Assembly (NCBI GenBank): GCA_029775925.1
Contig: JARVKB010000006.1
Coordinates: 1 to 44,734 of the forward strand
From: Nitrososphaeria archaeon
GTDB lineage: Archaea; Thermoproteota; Nitrososphaeria; Nitrososphaerales; JACAEJ01
Reading direction: 5' to 3'
Length of the DNA stretch: 44,734 nt
Both the position numbers and the translations under genes were made by a program. The notes below the pieces were generated by a model. It was not told the origin of the DNA, did no database searches, and saw nothing but the letters and a program-made list of their open reading frames with translations. Each line of letters begins with the position of its first letter. The first letter of the stretch is position 1. Positions 11,168 through 26,767 of this stretch are shown in pieces.

Positions 11168-12922
11168 TTGACAGAGATTCAGCCTGATGTTTTGCTAATA
11201 ATCCGTAAGCATGCTTTATTGAATGCTTACAAGCATAATGGGAAATGTGAACCAAACGCAGTCTTAGGAAAAGTTCTAAGTGAAAGACCGGATCTGAAAA
11301 ATGTTGTAAAGGAATTATACATTAGCTTGAAGCAAATAGTGGATGAGGTTAATCAACTTAGCCTAGATGAGCAGCTATCTATTCTTAAAACGGATTTTCC
11401 AGAAGCTATTATGGAAGTTTCTAAAGCTAAATTTGAGGAAAAGAAATTGCCACCTTTGCCAGAGGCTAATAAATATGCCAAGATAGTTACTAGGTTTTCT
11501 CCAAACCCAGACTGCGTCCTCCATTTGGGCTCAGCACGTGCGATTATTCTTTCTCATGATTATGCGAGACAATACAAAGGAAAATTCATTCTTAGATTTG
11601 AAGACACAGATCCAAGATTAAAGAAAGCGTCTTTGATATTTTATGATTTAATCAAAGAAGATCTTAAATGGTTAGAATGTAGATGGGATGAAGAGTTCAT
11701 TCAAAGTGATAGACTTAGCATATATTATAAAATTGTGGAAGATTTAATCAATGTAAATGGAGCTTACGTTTGTACTTGCCAACCGACAAATTTTCGTGAT
11801 TATATAGCCTTGGGTAAGGCTTGTCCTTGTAGAAATTTGACTTTAGATGATCAGATGAGAAGATGGGAAGATATGCTAGACGGAAAGTACAAAGAGGGAC
11901 AAGCGATTGTTAGGGTTAAAACTGATCTTAATCATCCTAATCCTGCTGTGAGGGACTGGCCTGCTCTTCGTATTGTTGATACAATAAAGCATCCGCACCC
12001 GAGAGTTGGGTCAAAATATCATATTTGGCCTTTGTATAACTTTGCTGCAGGTGTTGATGACCATTTGATGGGTATTACTCATATCATAAGAGGAAAAGAG
12101 CACTTAACAAACACCGTAAGGCAGATGTATATGTATAAGCATTTAGGTTGGAATTATCCGGTCGCCATCCATTATGGAAGGCTAAAGATAGAAGGAGCGG
12201 TGCTAAGTAAATCTAGGATAATCCAAGGCATAAAAGATGGATTATATGAAGGTTTTGATGATCCAAGACTTGCAACTTTTTTGGCTTTAAGGCGAAGAGG
12301 AATTCATCCAGATGCTATTCGCAAATTGATATACGATGTTGGTATTAAACCAGTGGATGTAACCTTAAGCTGGCAAAATCTTTACTCTTACAATAAACAA
12401 ATAATCGATAAGGTTGCATCTAGGTACTTTGCCATAATAGATATGATAGAACTTCAGGTTTATGGAGTAAAAGAGGATCTAAGGGCAATCTTACCAAAGC
12501 ACCCTGATGACAAAGCAAAAGGTAACAGGGAGATAAAAATTTATCAAGAAAATGGTGTTACAAAAGTCTTTGTCTCAAAGGCCGATATAGAGTTAATACT
12601 ATCAAAACCTATCATAAGACTTATGGGGCTTATGAATGTTGATAATGTAAAATTTGAGGGCAATCATCTTAGGGCAAGTTTTAAAGGACTATCTGTTCAT
12701 GAAGCGAAGGCTGCCAATGCACCTATTATTCACTGGCTTCCTATTCACGAATTCGTTAGGATAATTTTAGTAATGCCTACGGGAGAAAAAATTGAAGGTA
12801 TAGCCGAGAAAAGTCTTGCTGATGAGCCTATAAACTCTTTAGTACAGTTGGAAAGGATAGGCTTTGGCCGCATAGATTCAAAGTCTGATGACAAAATAAT
12901 TATCTACTTTACATCTAAATAA
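11168..12922 (+). CDS. gltX: Glutamyl-tRNA synthetase, archaeal type
   Basis: Class I synthetase charging tRNA-Glu; in archaea usually non-discriminating or paired with an amidotransferase. The N-terminal 100 residues form the archaeal helical extension. The HIGH-equivalent is HLGS near residue 119 in SPNPDCVLHLGSARA. A Cys-rich loop CTCQ...CPC lies near 203-221, and the KMSKS-equivalent is VLSKSRI near 345. The C-terminal half is the beta-barrel anticodon domain of the GlnRS/eukaryotic type. TTG start. Length 584. Coupled in position to the isoprenoid block and followed by the phosphodiesterase-like gene. Confidence 0.95.
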   Translation: MTEIQPDVLLIIRKHALLNAYKHNGKCEPNAVLGKVLSERPDLKNVVKELYISLKQIVDEVNQLSLDEQLSILKTDFPEAIMEVSKAKFEEKKLPPLPEANKYAKIVTRFSPNPDCVLHLGSARAIILSHDYARQYKGKFILRFEDTDPRLKKASLIFYDLIKEDLKWLECRWDEEFIQSDRLSIYYKIVEDLINVNGAYVCTCQPTNFRDYIALGKACPCRNLTLDDQMRRWEDMLDGKYKEGQAIVRVKTDLNHPNPAVRDWPALRIVDTIKHPHPRVGSKYHIWPLYNFAAGVDDHLMGITHIIRGKEHLTNTVRQMYMYKHLGWNYPVAIHYGRLKIEGAVLSKSRIIQGIKDGLYEGFDDPRLATFLALRRRGIHPDAIRKLIYDVGIKPVDVTLSWQNLYSYNKQIIDKVASRYFAIIDMIELQVYGVKEDLRAILPKHPDDKAKGNREIKIYQENGVTKVFVSKADIELILSKPIIRLMGLMNVDNVKFEGNHLRASFKGLSVHEAKAANAPIIHWLPIHEFVRIILVMPTGEKIEGIAEKSLADEPINSLVQLERIGFGRIDSKSDDKIIIYFTSK

Positions 12923-17141: not shown

Positions 17142-17552
17142 TTATTTAATTATTATCTTCACCCTCTTCCTTAATGTCTTATCACAAGCATGGCAATCAT
17201 CAGCATCAACGTCTGGCTCAATATATTTATGGATTTCACATAATAGTTTTGAGGCTCTTAAATAATCACAGGCTTCTGTTATTCTAAGCCTCAACTCCTT
17301 TCGACTCATCTCTCCTTTAAAAAGTAGATGCGCGATTTCATCCGTCATATGTTGAATTTCATCAACATCATCTAATTTTAACATTATAGCCCTCTTACCT
17401 TTTATATAATAACTTACGGCAGCCTGGGTTATCTCCAACTTTTTAGCAACTTCTTCTTGAACCAAACCATAATTTTCCATGAGTTTTCTCGCGATCATGG
17501 CTCTTAAAGCAGGAATCGCGGTTTTGTAGACTATCTCATAAGGTAGTATCAT
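17142..17552 (-). CDS. HTH transcriptional regulator with C-terminal four-cysteine motif
   Basis: A 136-residue predicted DNA-binding protein resembling the stand-alone HTH family COG2522, whose HTH also occurs fused to archaeal ThiN-type proteins. The XRE-like HTH spans roughly residues 28-53 (LVQEEVAKKLEITQAAVSYY). The C-terminus has C95-x9-C105-x14-C120-x2-C123 with H108 and H121 nearby, suggesting a zinc or iron-sulfur site that could sense metal or redox state. ATG start. Its gene is convergent with the HemN-like gene. A paralogue with the same Cys spacing is at 25961-26347. Targets unknown. Confidence 0.82.
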   Translation of the reverse strand: MILPYEIVYKTAIPALRAMIARKLMENYGLVQEEVAKKLEITQAAVSYYIKGKRAIMLKLDDVDEIQHMTDEIAHLLFKGEMSRKELRLRITEACDYLRASKLLCEIHKYIEPDVDADDCHACDKTLRKRVKIIIK

Positions 17553-24339: not shown

Positions 24340-25830
24340 TTATCCTATCTGGGCCCTTACCATCATAAAGACAGGCCCTCTTAAATCAATTTTTTTGTTA
24401 TTACTTGTGATAAATTTTAATGCGTCCTCTCTAACTTTAATGTTAAGTTCCCCGGATGTGCTGACCATAGCCCTCTTCATAATAAAATCATTTTTTCCTG
24501 ATTTTATCGCTTCTTCTATTCCATTGGCTACCAATGCAGCTAAAGAATCTATATATCTTATCCCAACTGGTATTCCACGCTCTCTTGCATTCTTTATCAA
24601 TTCTATTTTTGGGAAATCACCCTTCTTTGGAATTCCTAATATGTTCCCATCATAGACCACTATATCGTTAAAGGCTGCCTGTCCTAAAAGCTTCTTTCCT
24701 TCCTCATTCTGGACGAGCTTTACTATTACTCTCTTACCAAGGATTTCACCATCATACGCAGTATACTCAAAAGGGCTTGGAGTATCACCATACTTCTCAC
24801 ATGCTTCTATGATGGCAGCCTGTATCCTTTTTCCAGCTTCAGTTTGAGGAATTTTTTCAATGGTTATTGAAGATGCGATCTCTGAATCAGATAGATCTAA
24901 CTCAGCATAGAACTGTGGATAGACTAATTTACGGATATCAGAGAAGCAATATATGGTCATTGTAAGTCGCTCCACTCCTAGCCCCAAGTTCAAGACCGGA
25001 TAATATATCCTATATTTTTTGAGAACAACGTTGCTATAAATTCCAAAATCTATGACTTCAACCCAATCCTTATCGCTTTTTACTTTTACAAAAACTTCAG
25101 TCTCAGTATCTTTCTCGTAATAGCTTGCACTTCTTTTCTTCTTAACATACTTTATCTCCTTTATTCCAAAAGAATTTAACAATCTTTCAGCAACGTTCTT
25201 TGCATCTTCTAAGCTTAACTCTTCATCCATTATAACACTCGAGGCTGAATGATAACACCTAAGATGAGTTTCATCTAGAGTTTGTTCCCTTCGAAAGCAA
25301 AGATCTATAGAAAAGAGTTTTACTGGAAGTTTTTCTTTCTGAAATTCTTTTAAAGTTAGGAACCAACCCGAAGTCATGTGACTTCTAAGGGTAAGATTAG
25401 TAGCTATGGCCTTTTTTTGTTTTAACTCAGGAAAAGCGGTTAAAATCATCGAAGCTTTATCATCGTCTATCGAGAGAGTTTCGGCAATCTTATGGATTAA
25501 ATCTTCGCTATGAAATAATCCTTTCTTATAGTCATGGAAGATGGTTTGTAATGCTAATTTCTTATCTTGTTCAAGATTGATTCCCATTTTTCTAAGTTGA
25601 TCGAGCTTATCTTTGCTGATCCCTATATCAGGTCTAGGAAGAGTTGCAAGATAAAAACATCTATCAAGTATTATTGGAGCCTCATTGCCCCATTGCTTAT
25701 AAATGTCTTTTTCTTCAATAAATATTGGGTTATAAACCTCTTTAAAACCTAAATCAAGATAAACATTCCTAAGTTTTTCCATAACTTCTGATAAAGGATG
25801 CTTTCCAAATATTTTAGATTCTATAACCAA
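24340..25830 (-). CDS. sepS: O-phosphoseryl-tRNA(Cys) synthetase (SepRS)
   Basis: Class II synthetase that charges tRNA-Cys with O-phosphoserine, which SepCysS then converts to cysteine. Class II and SepRS-specific blocks are present: KHPLSEVMEKLRNVYLDLGF at the N-terminus, KQWGNEAPIILDRCFYLATL at 45-64, TLRSHMTSGWF at 147-157, the motif 2 region LFSIDLCFRREQ at 172-183, HLRCYHSASS at 189-198 (T153, S195 and S197 correspond to phosphoserine-contacting residues in methanogen SepRS), and motif 3 LNLGLGVERLTM near 280-291. The C-terminus is an anticodon-binding region. At 496 residues it lacks some N-terminal sequence of methanogen enzymes. TTG start. SepCysS is not in this window. Confidence 0.92.
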   Translation of the reverse strand: MVIESKIFGKHPLSEVMEKLRNVYLDLGFKEVYNPIFIEEKDIYKQWGNEAPIILDRCFYLATLPRPDIGISKDKLDQLRKMGINLEQDKKLALQTIFHDYKKGLFHSEDLIHKIAETLSIDDDKASMILTAFPELKQKKAIATNLTLRSHMTSGWFLTLKEFQKEKLPVKLFSIDLCFRREQTLDETHLRCYHSASSVIMDEELSLEDAKNVAERLLNSFGIKEIKYVKKKRSASYYEKDTETEVFVKVKSDKDWVEVIDFGIYSNVVLKKYRIYYPVLNLGLGVERLTMTIYCFSDIRKLVYPQFYAELDLSDSEIASSITIEKIPQTEAGKRIQAAIIEACEKYGDTPSPFEYTAYDGEILGKRVIVKLVQNEEGKKLLGQAAFNDIVVYDGNILGIPKKGDFPKIELIKNARERGIPVGIRYIDSLAALVANGIEEAIKSGKNDFIMKRAMVSTSGELNIKVREDALKFITSNNKKIDLRGPVFMMVRAQIG

Positions 25831-25872
25831 TTTATCATGCCTTCCCTTTAATTGACTTACCCTTTAGGTGAT

Positions 25873-25884
25873 AATAAATTTTAC
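25873..25884 (-). promoter_or_regulatory. Candidate TATA box for sepS
   Basis: On the minus strand gtaaaatttatt lies about 43-54 bases before the sepS start, in the 130-base gap shared with the divergent regulator gene. A shared gap leaves room for co-regulation. Visual assignment. Confidence 0.3.
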
Positions 25885-25960
25885 AACAGAAAAATATTAG
25901 CTCAATAACCAATAAACATATTAAGGAATTTTTTCTGAGCGATAAGGAAGGTAATAAGAG

Positions 25961-26347
25961 ATGCGAACGCCATGTGAGGTTGTAGTCAAATATATGTTGC
26001 CAGCGTTCCGCTCATATGTGGCAAAAGTTCTTATAAACGAGTACCATCTATCTCAGACCGATGTTTCAAAACGTTTAGGAACGACCCAAGCAGCTATAAG
26101 TCATTACATATCATCGAAAAGAGGTAGTAAAAAGTTAGCTCAGTTTGAGAGCGTACCTATGATGAGAAATATGGTAATGGAAATAGCAAAAGAAATAGCA
26201 AGTGGAAACGATTCACAAGCAGATGTCCTACTGCATCTTTGCAATATATGCAAATTCTTCAGAAATCATAATATCCTTTGTGATATGCATAAGGATATCG
26301 TACTCCTTCCGAATAAGTGCGATGTATGCGTCCAACAAAAGACTTAA
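25961..26347 (+). CDS. HTH transcriptional regulator with C-terminal four-cysteine motif, divergent from sepS
   Basis: A 128-residue COG2522-like regulator related to the gene at 17142-17552. N-terminal MRTPCEVVVKYMLPAFRSYVA leads into an HTH near residues 30-52 (LSQTDVSKRLGTTQAAISHY). The C-terminus has C97-x9-C107-x12-C120-x2-C123, aligning with the four Cys of its paralogue, plus C94 and H110. Likely metal- or FeS-binding sensor. ATG start with GGAAGG upstream. It is transcribed away from SepRS and toward tRNA-Cys, suggesting but not proving a role in cysteine supply. Confidence 0.82.
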   Translation: MRTPCEVVVKYMLPAFRSYVAKVLINEYHLSQTDVSKRLGTTQAAISHYISSKRGSKKLAQFESVPMMRNMVMEIAKEIASGNDSQADVLLHLCNICKFFRNHNILCDMHKDIVLLPNKCDVCVQQKT

Positions 26348-26676
26348 AACTAATTTTATTGAGTCTGTCAAGACAACTTCTTTGATCGAGCTCGATGGTG
26401 AAAAGGCAAATGTCTTCAGTAAGAATAAATGCTATTAATGATCTATCTGTTTTGCTTTAATAATGATGTTTAAAGGGCAGATAAAATCTTAAGAATTATT
26501 GGCATAGTGAGACTAATCTTTATGACAATATTTATAACAAGAATACTCTACACAAGAATCGTCGTTATGTTAGCCCTTCATAGAATCAGGCAAGGCTTAT
26601 CTCAAAAAGTCAAGAGATGTGGCGTAAAGTTTTATAGCAAGCTTATCTTACGCAAAAATCACATAAAAATCCGAGA
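26348..26676. other. Intergenic region before tRNA-Cys
   Basis: About 330 bases of AT-rich sequence without a supported protein gene. One open frame here runs into the tRNA and has a composition unlike a protein gene. A TATA-like stretch (gttttatag) near 26628-26637 is about 40 bases upstream of tRNA-Cys and is a fair promoter candidate for it. I see no other structured RNA that I can defend. Confidence 0.4.
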
Positions 26677-26767
26677 GCCGGGGTGGCCGAGCGGTTAGGC
26701 GGTGGGCTGCAGATAAAAGAGCATAATAGATACCCGCTTTATGCAGGTTCGAATCCTGCCCCCGGCT
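26677..26767 (+). tRNA. tRNA-Cys(GCA) with intron
   Basis: Acceptor strands gccgggg (26677-26683) and ccccggc (26760-26766) pair perfectly, followed by discriminator T, the base typical of tRNA-Cys. D arm 26686-26700. The anticodon stem gtggg/cccgc (26702-26706 with 26733-26737) has one G-T pair. T arm gcagg-ttcgaat-cctgc is at 26743-26759. The mature anticodon loop is CTGCAGA with anticodon GCA at 26709-26711 and G37. A 19-base intron interrupts positions 37/38. The spliced tRNA is 72 bases; CCA is not encoded and a short T-run follows. Probable substrate of the SepRS encoded under 1 kb away. Confidence 0.94.
26713..26731 (+). other. Intron of tRNA-Cys(GCA)
   Basis: Nineteen bases inserted between canonical positions 37 and 38, the common archaeal intron site. 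Removing them restores a normal 7-base anticodon loop and 5-base-pair stem. Excision would need the bulge-helix-bulge endonuclease and joining by RtcB, whose activator archease is encoded at 19240-19674. Confidence 0.85.

What the first reader, a model, noticed from the sequence alone, without database searches (positions are those of the whole stretch)
24340..26767. SepRS gene under 1 kb from a tRNA-Cys gene, with a divergent regulator between
SepRS (24340-25830) carries the phosphoserine-site signatures TLRSHMTSGWF and HSAS. A tRNA-Cys(GCA) with U73 and G37 lies at 26677. SepRS is established mainly in methanogens and Archaeoglobus, and reported in a few uncultured lineages; the rest of this window looks TACK-like. 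The enzyme-substrate pair plus an HTH gene could be a local unit for tRNA-dependent cysteine synthesis. SepCysS and SepCysE were not seen, and it is unknown whether CysRS also exists.
Basis: partly seen in the sequence, partly recalled or inferred. Interest (0 to 1): 0.78.

Follow-up and report, generated by a model that had tools for sequence, protein, structure and literature searches.

The report
Two paired cysteine-tRNA systems, one genome
This uncultured archaeon carries the rare tRNA-based pathway for making cysteine, with its synthetase gene sitting beside its own tRNA gene, and it also carries the ordinary cysteine enzyme beside a second, different tRNA gene; a close relative has deleted the ordinary pair and left a scrap of that tRNA behind.

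Summary
24340-25830(-) is a genuine SepRS (TIGR00470, 575 bits against a 381-bit cut-off; PheRS-alpha models about 106). 26677-26767(+) is tRNA-Cys(GCA), with a 19-nt intron at 37/38, G37 and U73. The genome belongs to the Nitrososphaeria family "Ca. Methylarchaceae". SepRS in such archaea is not new (Mukai 2017), and 20 of 26 other SepRS-bearing Thermoproteota also have CysRS. The less ordinary part is the pairing. tRNA-Cys type I lies next to SepRS in all five family members examined; a distinct type II (62-70% identical) lies next to CysRS in all six that have CysRS. In HK01M, CysRS and most of type II are deleted, a 22-nt tRNA remnant marks the spot, type I is duplicated, and SepCysS is replaced by a Bathyarchaeota-type SepCysSn-SepCysS. 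Best reading: SepRS with tRNA I makes new cysteine, and CysRS with tRNA II recycles it. Exclusive charging is untested. The HTH gene is usually linked but dispensable.

The parts
24340..25830 (-). SepRS (O-phosphoseryl-tRNA(Cys) synthetase), 496 aa, TTG start; lacks the ~35-residue N-terminal helix of most SepRS
   Evidence: TIGR00470 575 bits over cut-off 380.65; SepRS_C domain PF18006; PDB 2du3 E 1e-136; clades with SepRS, not PheRS-alpha; N-terminus compared
25961..26347 (+). Cys-rich helix-turn-helix protein, 128 aa, divergent from SepRS; conserved in 4 of 5 family SepRS loci, missing in HK01M
   Evidence: HTH_3 E 1.6e-4, just under its cut-off; orthologues 57-69% identical in L070, L071, L074; absent in L072; regulator role inferred only
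26677..26712 (+). tRNA-Cys(GCA) type I, 5' exon
   Evidence: ARAGORN with introns; spliced sequence checked
26713..26731 (+). 19-nt intron at canonical position 37/38 of tRNA-Cys type I
   Evidence: introns of other length at the same place in relatives
26732..26767 (+). tRNA-Cys(GCA) type I, 3' exon, ending in discriminator U73
17142..17552 (-). Paralogue of the HTH protein elsewhere in the window (33% identical); shows that the HTH is a general family, not specific to SepRS
   Evidence: alignment

Best explanation
The window carries one half of a double cysteine-tRNA system. SepRS charges tRNA-Cys type I (the gene beside it) with O-phosphoserine; SepCysS, encoded on another contig, converts Sep-tRNA to Cys-tRNA. 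Since no cysteine synthase or CBS was found, this is probably the cell's only de novo cysteine source. CysRS, with its own linked tRNA-Cys type II, then most likely reloads free cysteine from protein turnover or uptake. SepRS and tRNA I are inherited as a linked unit; tRNA II and CysRS are the other unit, which HK01M deleted. Shown: gene identities, both linkages, absence of free-Cys enzymes in this MAG, the deletion scar. Inferred: enzyme activities, preference of each synthetase for its linked tRNA, division into synthesis and recycling.
For: SepRS over cut-off with the Asn-X-Gly motif (NLG) and pocket residues His, Thr, Ser, Ser. SepCysS 393 bits over cut-off, with CxxC, HKS and third Cys aligned to 3wkr. 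CysRS 549 bits; SepRS and CysRS lie on one 63-kb contig in G184, so this is not contamination. PALP proteins are ThrC, TrpB, TrpB2 only. tRNA I next to SepRS in 5 of 5 family loci but in only 4 of 76 other SepRS loci. tRNA II next to CysRS in 6 of 6 CysRS-bearing family genomes, within about 20 nt in G445 and G447. HK01M: 22-nt tRNA II remnant in a collinear contig where CysRS should be, two type I copies. tRNA I is 83-84% identical to the tRNA-Cys of Bathyarchaeota tRNA-SepCysSn-SepCysS-SepRS clusters and 62-70% to type II. Literature: dual organisms rely on SepRS for Cys biosynthesis (PMC8762117); M. mazei SepRS and CysRS prefer different isoacceptors (PMC9976931).
Against: Both tRNA types carry the shared determinants GCA, G37, A47, A59 and U73, so cross-charging is plausible. 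No activity data. The absence of cysteine synthase rests on one MAG (96% complete). Linkage can reflect co-inheritance without specialisation. A pocket residue that is Thr305 in A. fulgidus aligns with Asp here, although Asp or Asn is common at that position in other TACK SepRS. Only one tRNA-Cys from a Nitrososphaeria outside the family (G452) was compared.
Confidence: 0.7

Rival explanations
1. Redundant, not partitioned: SepRS and CysRS both charge both tRNA-Cys types, as for the single tRNA of M. maripaludis; the linkages are inherited map positions with no functional meaning.
For: Shared identity elements GCA, G37, A47, A59 and U73 in both types; a single shared tRNA is reported for M. 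acetivorans and M. maripaludis (PMC8762117).
Against: Two clearly different isoacceptors are kept, each beside its synthetase, across three genera and through rearrangement; in HK01M type II went together with CysRS.
Confidence: 0.4
2. SepRS, HTH and tRNA-Cys form a regulated local unit: the divergent Cys-rich HTH protein senses sulfur, cysteine or iron-sulfur status and controls SepRS and the tRNA.
For: Divergent HTH-SepRS arrangement kept in 4 of 5 family loci; conserved cysteines in the C-terminal part.
Against: No clear conserved operator in the intergenic alignment; a paralogue elsewhere in the window; HTH missing from the HK01M locus.
Confidence: 0.2
3. The protein is a repurposed SepRS-like paralogue (as in Thermoplasmata) rather than a working SepRS.
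For: It lacks the ~35-residue N-terminal helix of most SepRS; Asp replaces Thr305 of A. fulgidus.
Against: Asn-X-Gly motif intact, whereas SepRS-like proteins lose it (PMC8762117); anticodon-binding part and SepCysS present; HK01M, with the same short SepRS, has no detectable CysRS and must depend on it.
Confidence: 0.04

Closest known systems
SepRS-SepCysS tRNA-dependent cysteine pathway (Methanocaldococcus, Archaeoglobus; TACK, Asgard and DPANN members in Mukai 2017 and 2022)
   Same: SepRS and SepCysS families over curated cut-offs; tRNA-Cys with GCA, G37, U73; no cysteine synthase found
   Different: No SepCysE or SepCysSn next to SepCysS in this genome; SepRS, tRNA-Cys and SepCysS not in one operon; CysRS also present; short SepRS N-terminus
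Dual SepRS/CysRS archaea (Methanosarcina mazei, Methanococcus maripaludis)
   Same: Both routes in one cell; several tRNA-Cys isoacceptors, as in M. mazei
   Different: Each isoacceptor gene lies beside a different synthetase gene; I found no description of this pairing in the papers read
Bathyarchaeota BA2-type operon tRNA-Cys - SepCysSn - SepCysS - SepRS
   Same: tRNA-Cys near SepRS; tRNA 83-84% identical to type I; HK01M carries the same SepCysSn-SepCysS (75% and 79% identical)
   Different: In the window SepRS and tRNA are divergent, separated by an HTH gene, and SepCysS is a different clade (38% to HK01M's)
'Ca. Methylarchaceae' / 'Ca. Methylarchaeales' methanogens (PMC9478090)
   Same: Same family by GTDB grouping and SepRS tree; G440 is taken to be 'Ca. 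Methylarchaeum tengchongensis'
   Different: mcrA not found in this genome or in G184; the cited paper's main text does not discuss its cysteine pathway

Membership tests
SepRS (TIGR00470) | Full-length match over curated cut-off and better than PheRS | tested here: met
   575.1 bits against cut-off 380.65; best PheRS model 105.9
SepRS (TIGR00470) | Clusters with SepRS rather than PheRS-alpha in a tree | tested here: met
   100% SH-aLRT branch separates 70 SepRS from 6 PheRS-alpha
SepRS (TIGR00470) | Phosphoserine-pocket residues (His186, Thr188, Ser231, Ser233, Thr305 in A. fulgidus; residue list from memory) and Asn-X-Gly motif (PMC8762117) | tested here: inconclusive
   H, T, S, S and NLG present; Thr305 aligns with Asp, a common variant in TACK SepRS
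SepRS (TIGR00470) | C-terminal anticodon-binding domain | tested here: met
   PF18006 SepRS_C 33.3 bits over 26.9; alignment runs to the last residues
SepRS (TIGR00470) | Charges tRNA-Cys with O-phosphoserine | not testable with these tools
   needs a bench assay
tRNA-Cys (SepRS type) | Cloverleaf, GCA anticodon, G37, U73 | tested here: met
   ARAGORN with introns, spliced sequence
SepRS-SepCysS pathway | SepCysS in the same genome with PLP lysine and catalytic cysteines | tested here: met
   393 bits over 365.25; CxxC, HKS, third Cys aligned to 3wkr
SepCysE transsulfursome | SepCysE or SepCysSn present | tested here: inconclusive
   none upstream of SepCysS in the window's genome; rest of genome not searched for lack of a model
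SepCysSn (as identity of the HTH gene) | Sequence similarity to SepCysSn | tested here: not met
   128-aa HTH protein resembles Cro/HipB-type HTHs only weakly; by inspection unlike the 60-aa SepCysSn of L126, L149 and HK01M
Dual SepRS/CysRS organism | Full-length CysRS in the same genome, not a contaminant | tested here: met
   549.5 bits; both genes on one contig in G184
Cysteine made by the tRNA route only | No cysteine synthase, OPSS or CBS (PALP family) | tested here: met
   three PALP proteins: ThrC, TrpB, TrpB2; one MAG, 96% complete

The most novel reading that the evidence does not exclude
The family runs two mutually orthogonal cysteine-tRNA systems: SepRS uses only tRNA-Cys type I (synthesis) and CysRS only type II (recycling), with core differences such as position 15 and the D-arm acting as the discriminator; HK01M shows the CysRS/tRNA II module being lost in one step while the indirect route was rebuilt with a horizontally acquired SepCysSn-SepCysS.
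Probability: 0.3. Interest if true: 0.75.

Novelty: new variant of a known kind. Interest (0 to 1): 0.55.

Why it matters
How the direct (CysRS) and indirect (SepRS) routes to Cys-tRNA coexist and replace each other is an old question about the genetic code. The papers read here discuss CysRS being acquired by SepRS organisms; HK01M instead documents loss of CysRS together with most of a tRNA-Cys gene, with a sequence scar. The linked pairs supply two natural synthetase/tRNA sets whose cross-charging can be measured directly, and the type I pair is a candidate phosphoserine-incorporation tool of TACK origin.

Tried and rejected
Default ARAGORN call of tRNA-Tyr(ata): rejected, it is an intron-containing Cys tRNA. 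PheRS-alpha identity: rejected. Contamination as the source of CysRS: rejected, same contig as SepRS in G184. HTH as SepCysSn/SepCysE: rejected. Incomplete assembly as the reason for missing CysRS in HK01M: disfavoured by collinear flanks and the tRNA remnant on one contig. G442 at first seemed to lack tRNA type II; it has it, with an intron at 37/38 and an extra 18-nt insert in the T-loop. Conserved operator between SepRS and HTH: none evident. Unique N-terminal truncation: not unique, several Altiarchaeota SepRS lack the helix too. mcrA in the window's genome: not found. phmmer of the HK01M 60-aa ORF against PDB gave nothing significant; it was placed by its 75% match to the Bathyarchaeota SepCysSn. 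Whole-genome laying was not available.

Full report
Observation. The ORF at 24340-25830(-) encodes 496 aa with the quoted motifs TLRSHMTSGWF and HSAS. It matches TIGR00470 (SepRS) with 575.1 bits, cut-off 380.65, and the best PheRS-alpha model with only 105.9; Pfam finds the class II core and the SepRS_C domain; the closest solved structure is A. fulgidus SepRS 2du3, E 1e-136. The tRNA is real but was miscalled by default ARAGORN as Tyr(ata); with introns allowed it is tRNA-Cys(GCA) with a 19-nt intron at 37/38. The spliced product has G37 and U73, and its exons are 26677-26712 and 26732-26767. The divergent HTH ORF lies between (25961-26347). The coordinates in the finding are correct.

Organism. 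The window is contig C16 of a 1.40-Mb MAG, 34 contigs, 96.35% complete, 3.22% contaminated. SepRS relatives with names are Nitrososphaeria JZ2_bin.220247 (79%), an uncultured Nitrososphaerales (80%), 'Ca. Methylarchaceae' HK01M (71%) and Nitrososphaerales L.E.AR.22 (70%). PMC9478090 lists HK01M and JZ-2-bin_220 as 'Ca. Methanoinsularis haikouensis' and 'Ca. Methylarchaeum tengchongensis'; I equate JZ2_bin.220247 with the latter by name and size. GTDB grouping places the window's genome, G184 and G443 (which gives the same CysRS coordinates as G440, the JZ2 genome) in one genus, and four further genomes in the same family. mcrA was found in G440 and HK01M but not in the window's genome, G184 or G442.

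Pathway completeness. SepCysS: G000:C21:27616-28848, 393 bits over cut-off, with the CxxC pair, the PLP lysine motif HKS and the third cysteine aligned to M. jannaschii SepCysS 3wkr. CysRS: G000:C1, 549.5 bits. In G184 SepRS and CysRS lie on the same 63,463-bp contig, so coexistence is not a binning error. The three PALP-family proteins are threonine synthase, TrpB and TrpB2: no cysteine synthase, O-phosphoserine sulfhydrylase or CBS was found. SepCysE was not searched genome-wide for lack of a model; nothing like SepCysSn precedes SepCysS here.

How rare. SepRS is absent from nearly all of the class: 3 of 200 genomes over cut-off. It is present in 27 of 299 genomes of the phylum, and 20 of the 26 others also carry CysRS. 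Mukai et al. 2017 (PMC5424206) had already reported SepRS in TACK archaea including a Thaumarchaeota group, and PMC8762117 discusses organisms with both synthetases. The mere presence of SepRS is therefore a new member of a known distribution.

Linked pairs. In the five family loci with SepRS in hand (window, L070, L071, L072, L074) a tRNA-Cys of one type, 'type I', lies within about 0.9 kb of SepRS and divergent from it. Outer neighbours differ between genera: complex-I genes in the window genus, the tetraether synthase gene in L072 and L074. Among 76 other SepRS loci with up to 6-kb flanks only four have a tRNA-Cys. A second tRNA-Cys, 'type II', lies upstream of CysRS on the same strand in all six CysRS-bearing family genomes: window genome about 0.6 kb, G184 and G440 1-2 kb, G442 about 80 nt, G445 and G447 within about 20 nt. 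Types I and II are 62-70% identical to each other. Type I is 83-84% identical to the tRNA-Cys of Bathyarchaeota tRNA-SepCysSn-SepCysS-SepRS clusters, while type II is closest to the CysRS-linked tRNA-Cys of G452, another family of the same order (72-77%). Both types keep GCA, G37, A47, A59 and U73. By my numbering type I has G15, and type II A15 in all but G442, with Y48. PMC9976931 summarises that M. mazei SepRS and CysRS prefer different isoacceptors through core determinants, so discrimination in the core is possible, but it is not shown here.

Deletion in HK01M. HK01M alone in the family lacks CysRS. Its contig C155 is collinear with G445, but where G445 has 2-oxoacid oxidoreductase gamma - CysRS - tRNA II - MBL hydrolase, HK01M has gamma - a 22-nt piece GCCGAAGTGACGGAATCTGGTT - MBL hydrolase (gene families). 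The piece is the 5' end of tRNA II with one mismatch. HK01M instead has two type I genes, one beside SepRS and one about 250-290 nt before SepCysS. Its SepCysS is 79% identical to a Bathyarchaeota SepCysS and 38% to the window genome's, whereas the window and G442 enzymes are 75% identical. A 60-aa SepCysSn, 75% identical to the Bathyarchaeota one, precedes it. The simplest account is horizontal replacement of SepCysS plus a deletion of the CysRS/tRNA II unit. I did not check other MAGs of that species.

Trees. SepRS: the family forms a group apart from PheRS-alpha; nearest others are L073 and L098, with uncertain root. The SepRS of the same-class genome G037 falls elsewhere, so SepRS in the class has at least two histories. 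CysRS: the family groups with two other families of the order, 99% SH-aLRT, which fits inheritance within the order. These are quick trees without bootstraps.

HTH gene. Orthologues are 57-69% identical beside SepRS in L070, L071 and L074 and absent in L072; a 33% paralogue lies in the window at 17142-17552. It has conserved cysteines and weak similarity to Cro/HipB-type HTHs. No clear shared operator was seen. A regulatory role is only a possibility.

Mechanism and limits. Most likely O-phosphoserine is charged to tRNA I by SepRS and converted by SepCysS, giving all new cysteine; CysRS with tRNA II recycles free cysteine, as suggested for dual organisms in PMC8762117. Shown: gene identities, linkages, missing free-cysteine enzymes in one MAG, and the HK01M scar. 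Not shown: any activity or specificity. The family-wide SepRS N-terminal shortening (54-56 residues before the LDR motif instead of usually 83-98) also occurs in some Altiarchaeota and has no assigned meaning.

Noticed in passing
G441:C155 (HK01M), L255 7435-7657: 22-nt remnant of tRNA-Cys type II where sister species carry tRNA II and CysRS: a deletion scar.
   Followed up: yes
L179 3513-5036 (HK01M C160): tRNA-Cys type I, 60-aa SepCysSn and Bathyarchaeota-like SepCysS in a row; apparent horizontal replacement of the family's SepCysS.
   Followed up: partly
G000:C21, L187 5803-8030 and L183 2121-8849: mtaB, mtaC and mtaA methanol methyltransferase genes close to SepCysS although no mcrA was found in this genome or in G184; the same genus has mcrA in G440.
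   Followed up: partly
L176 about 11529-11632 (G442): tRNA-Cys type II with an intron at 37/38 and an extra 18-nt insert in the T-loop.
   Followed up: partly
window 24340-25830: SepRS lacks the ~35-residue N-terminal helix in the whole family; several Altiarchaeota lack it too.
   Followed up: partly
window 24340-25830, residue aligned to A. fulgidus Thr305: Asp in place of Thr at a remembered phosphoserine-pocket position; Asp or Asn is common there in TACK SepRS.
   Followed up: partly
window 17142-17552: Paralogue of the SepRS-linked Cys-rich HTH protein.
   Followed up: partly
G202, G217 and other f20 genomes (L237-L249): CysRS in one Thermoproteota family matches only about the first 375 of 466 profile positions, i.e. 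seems to lack the C-terminal part, in genomes that also have SepRS.
   Followed up: no
L016, L178 (G037): A different family of the same class has a SepCysS-SepRS operon from another SepRS lineage.
   Followed up: partly
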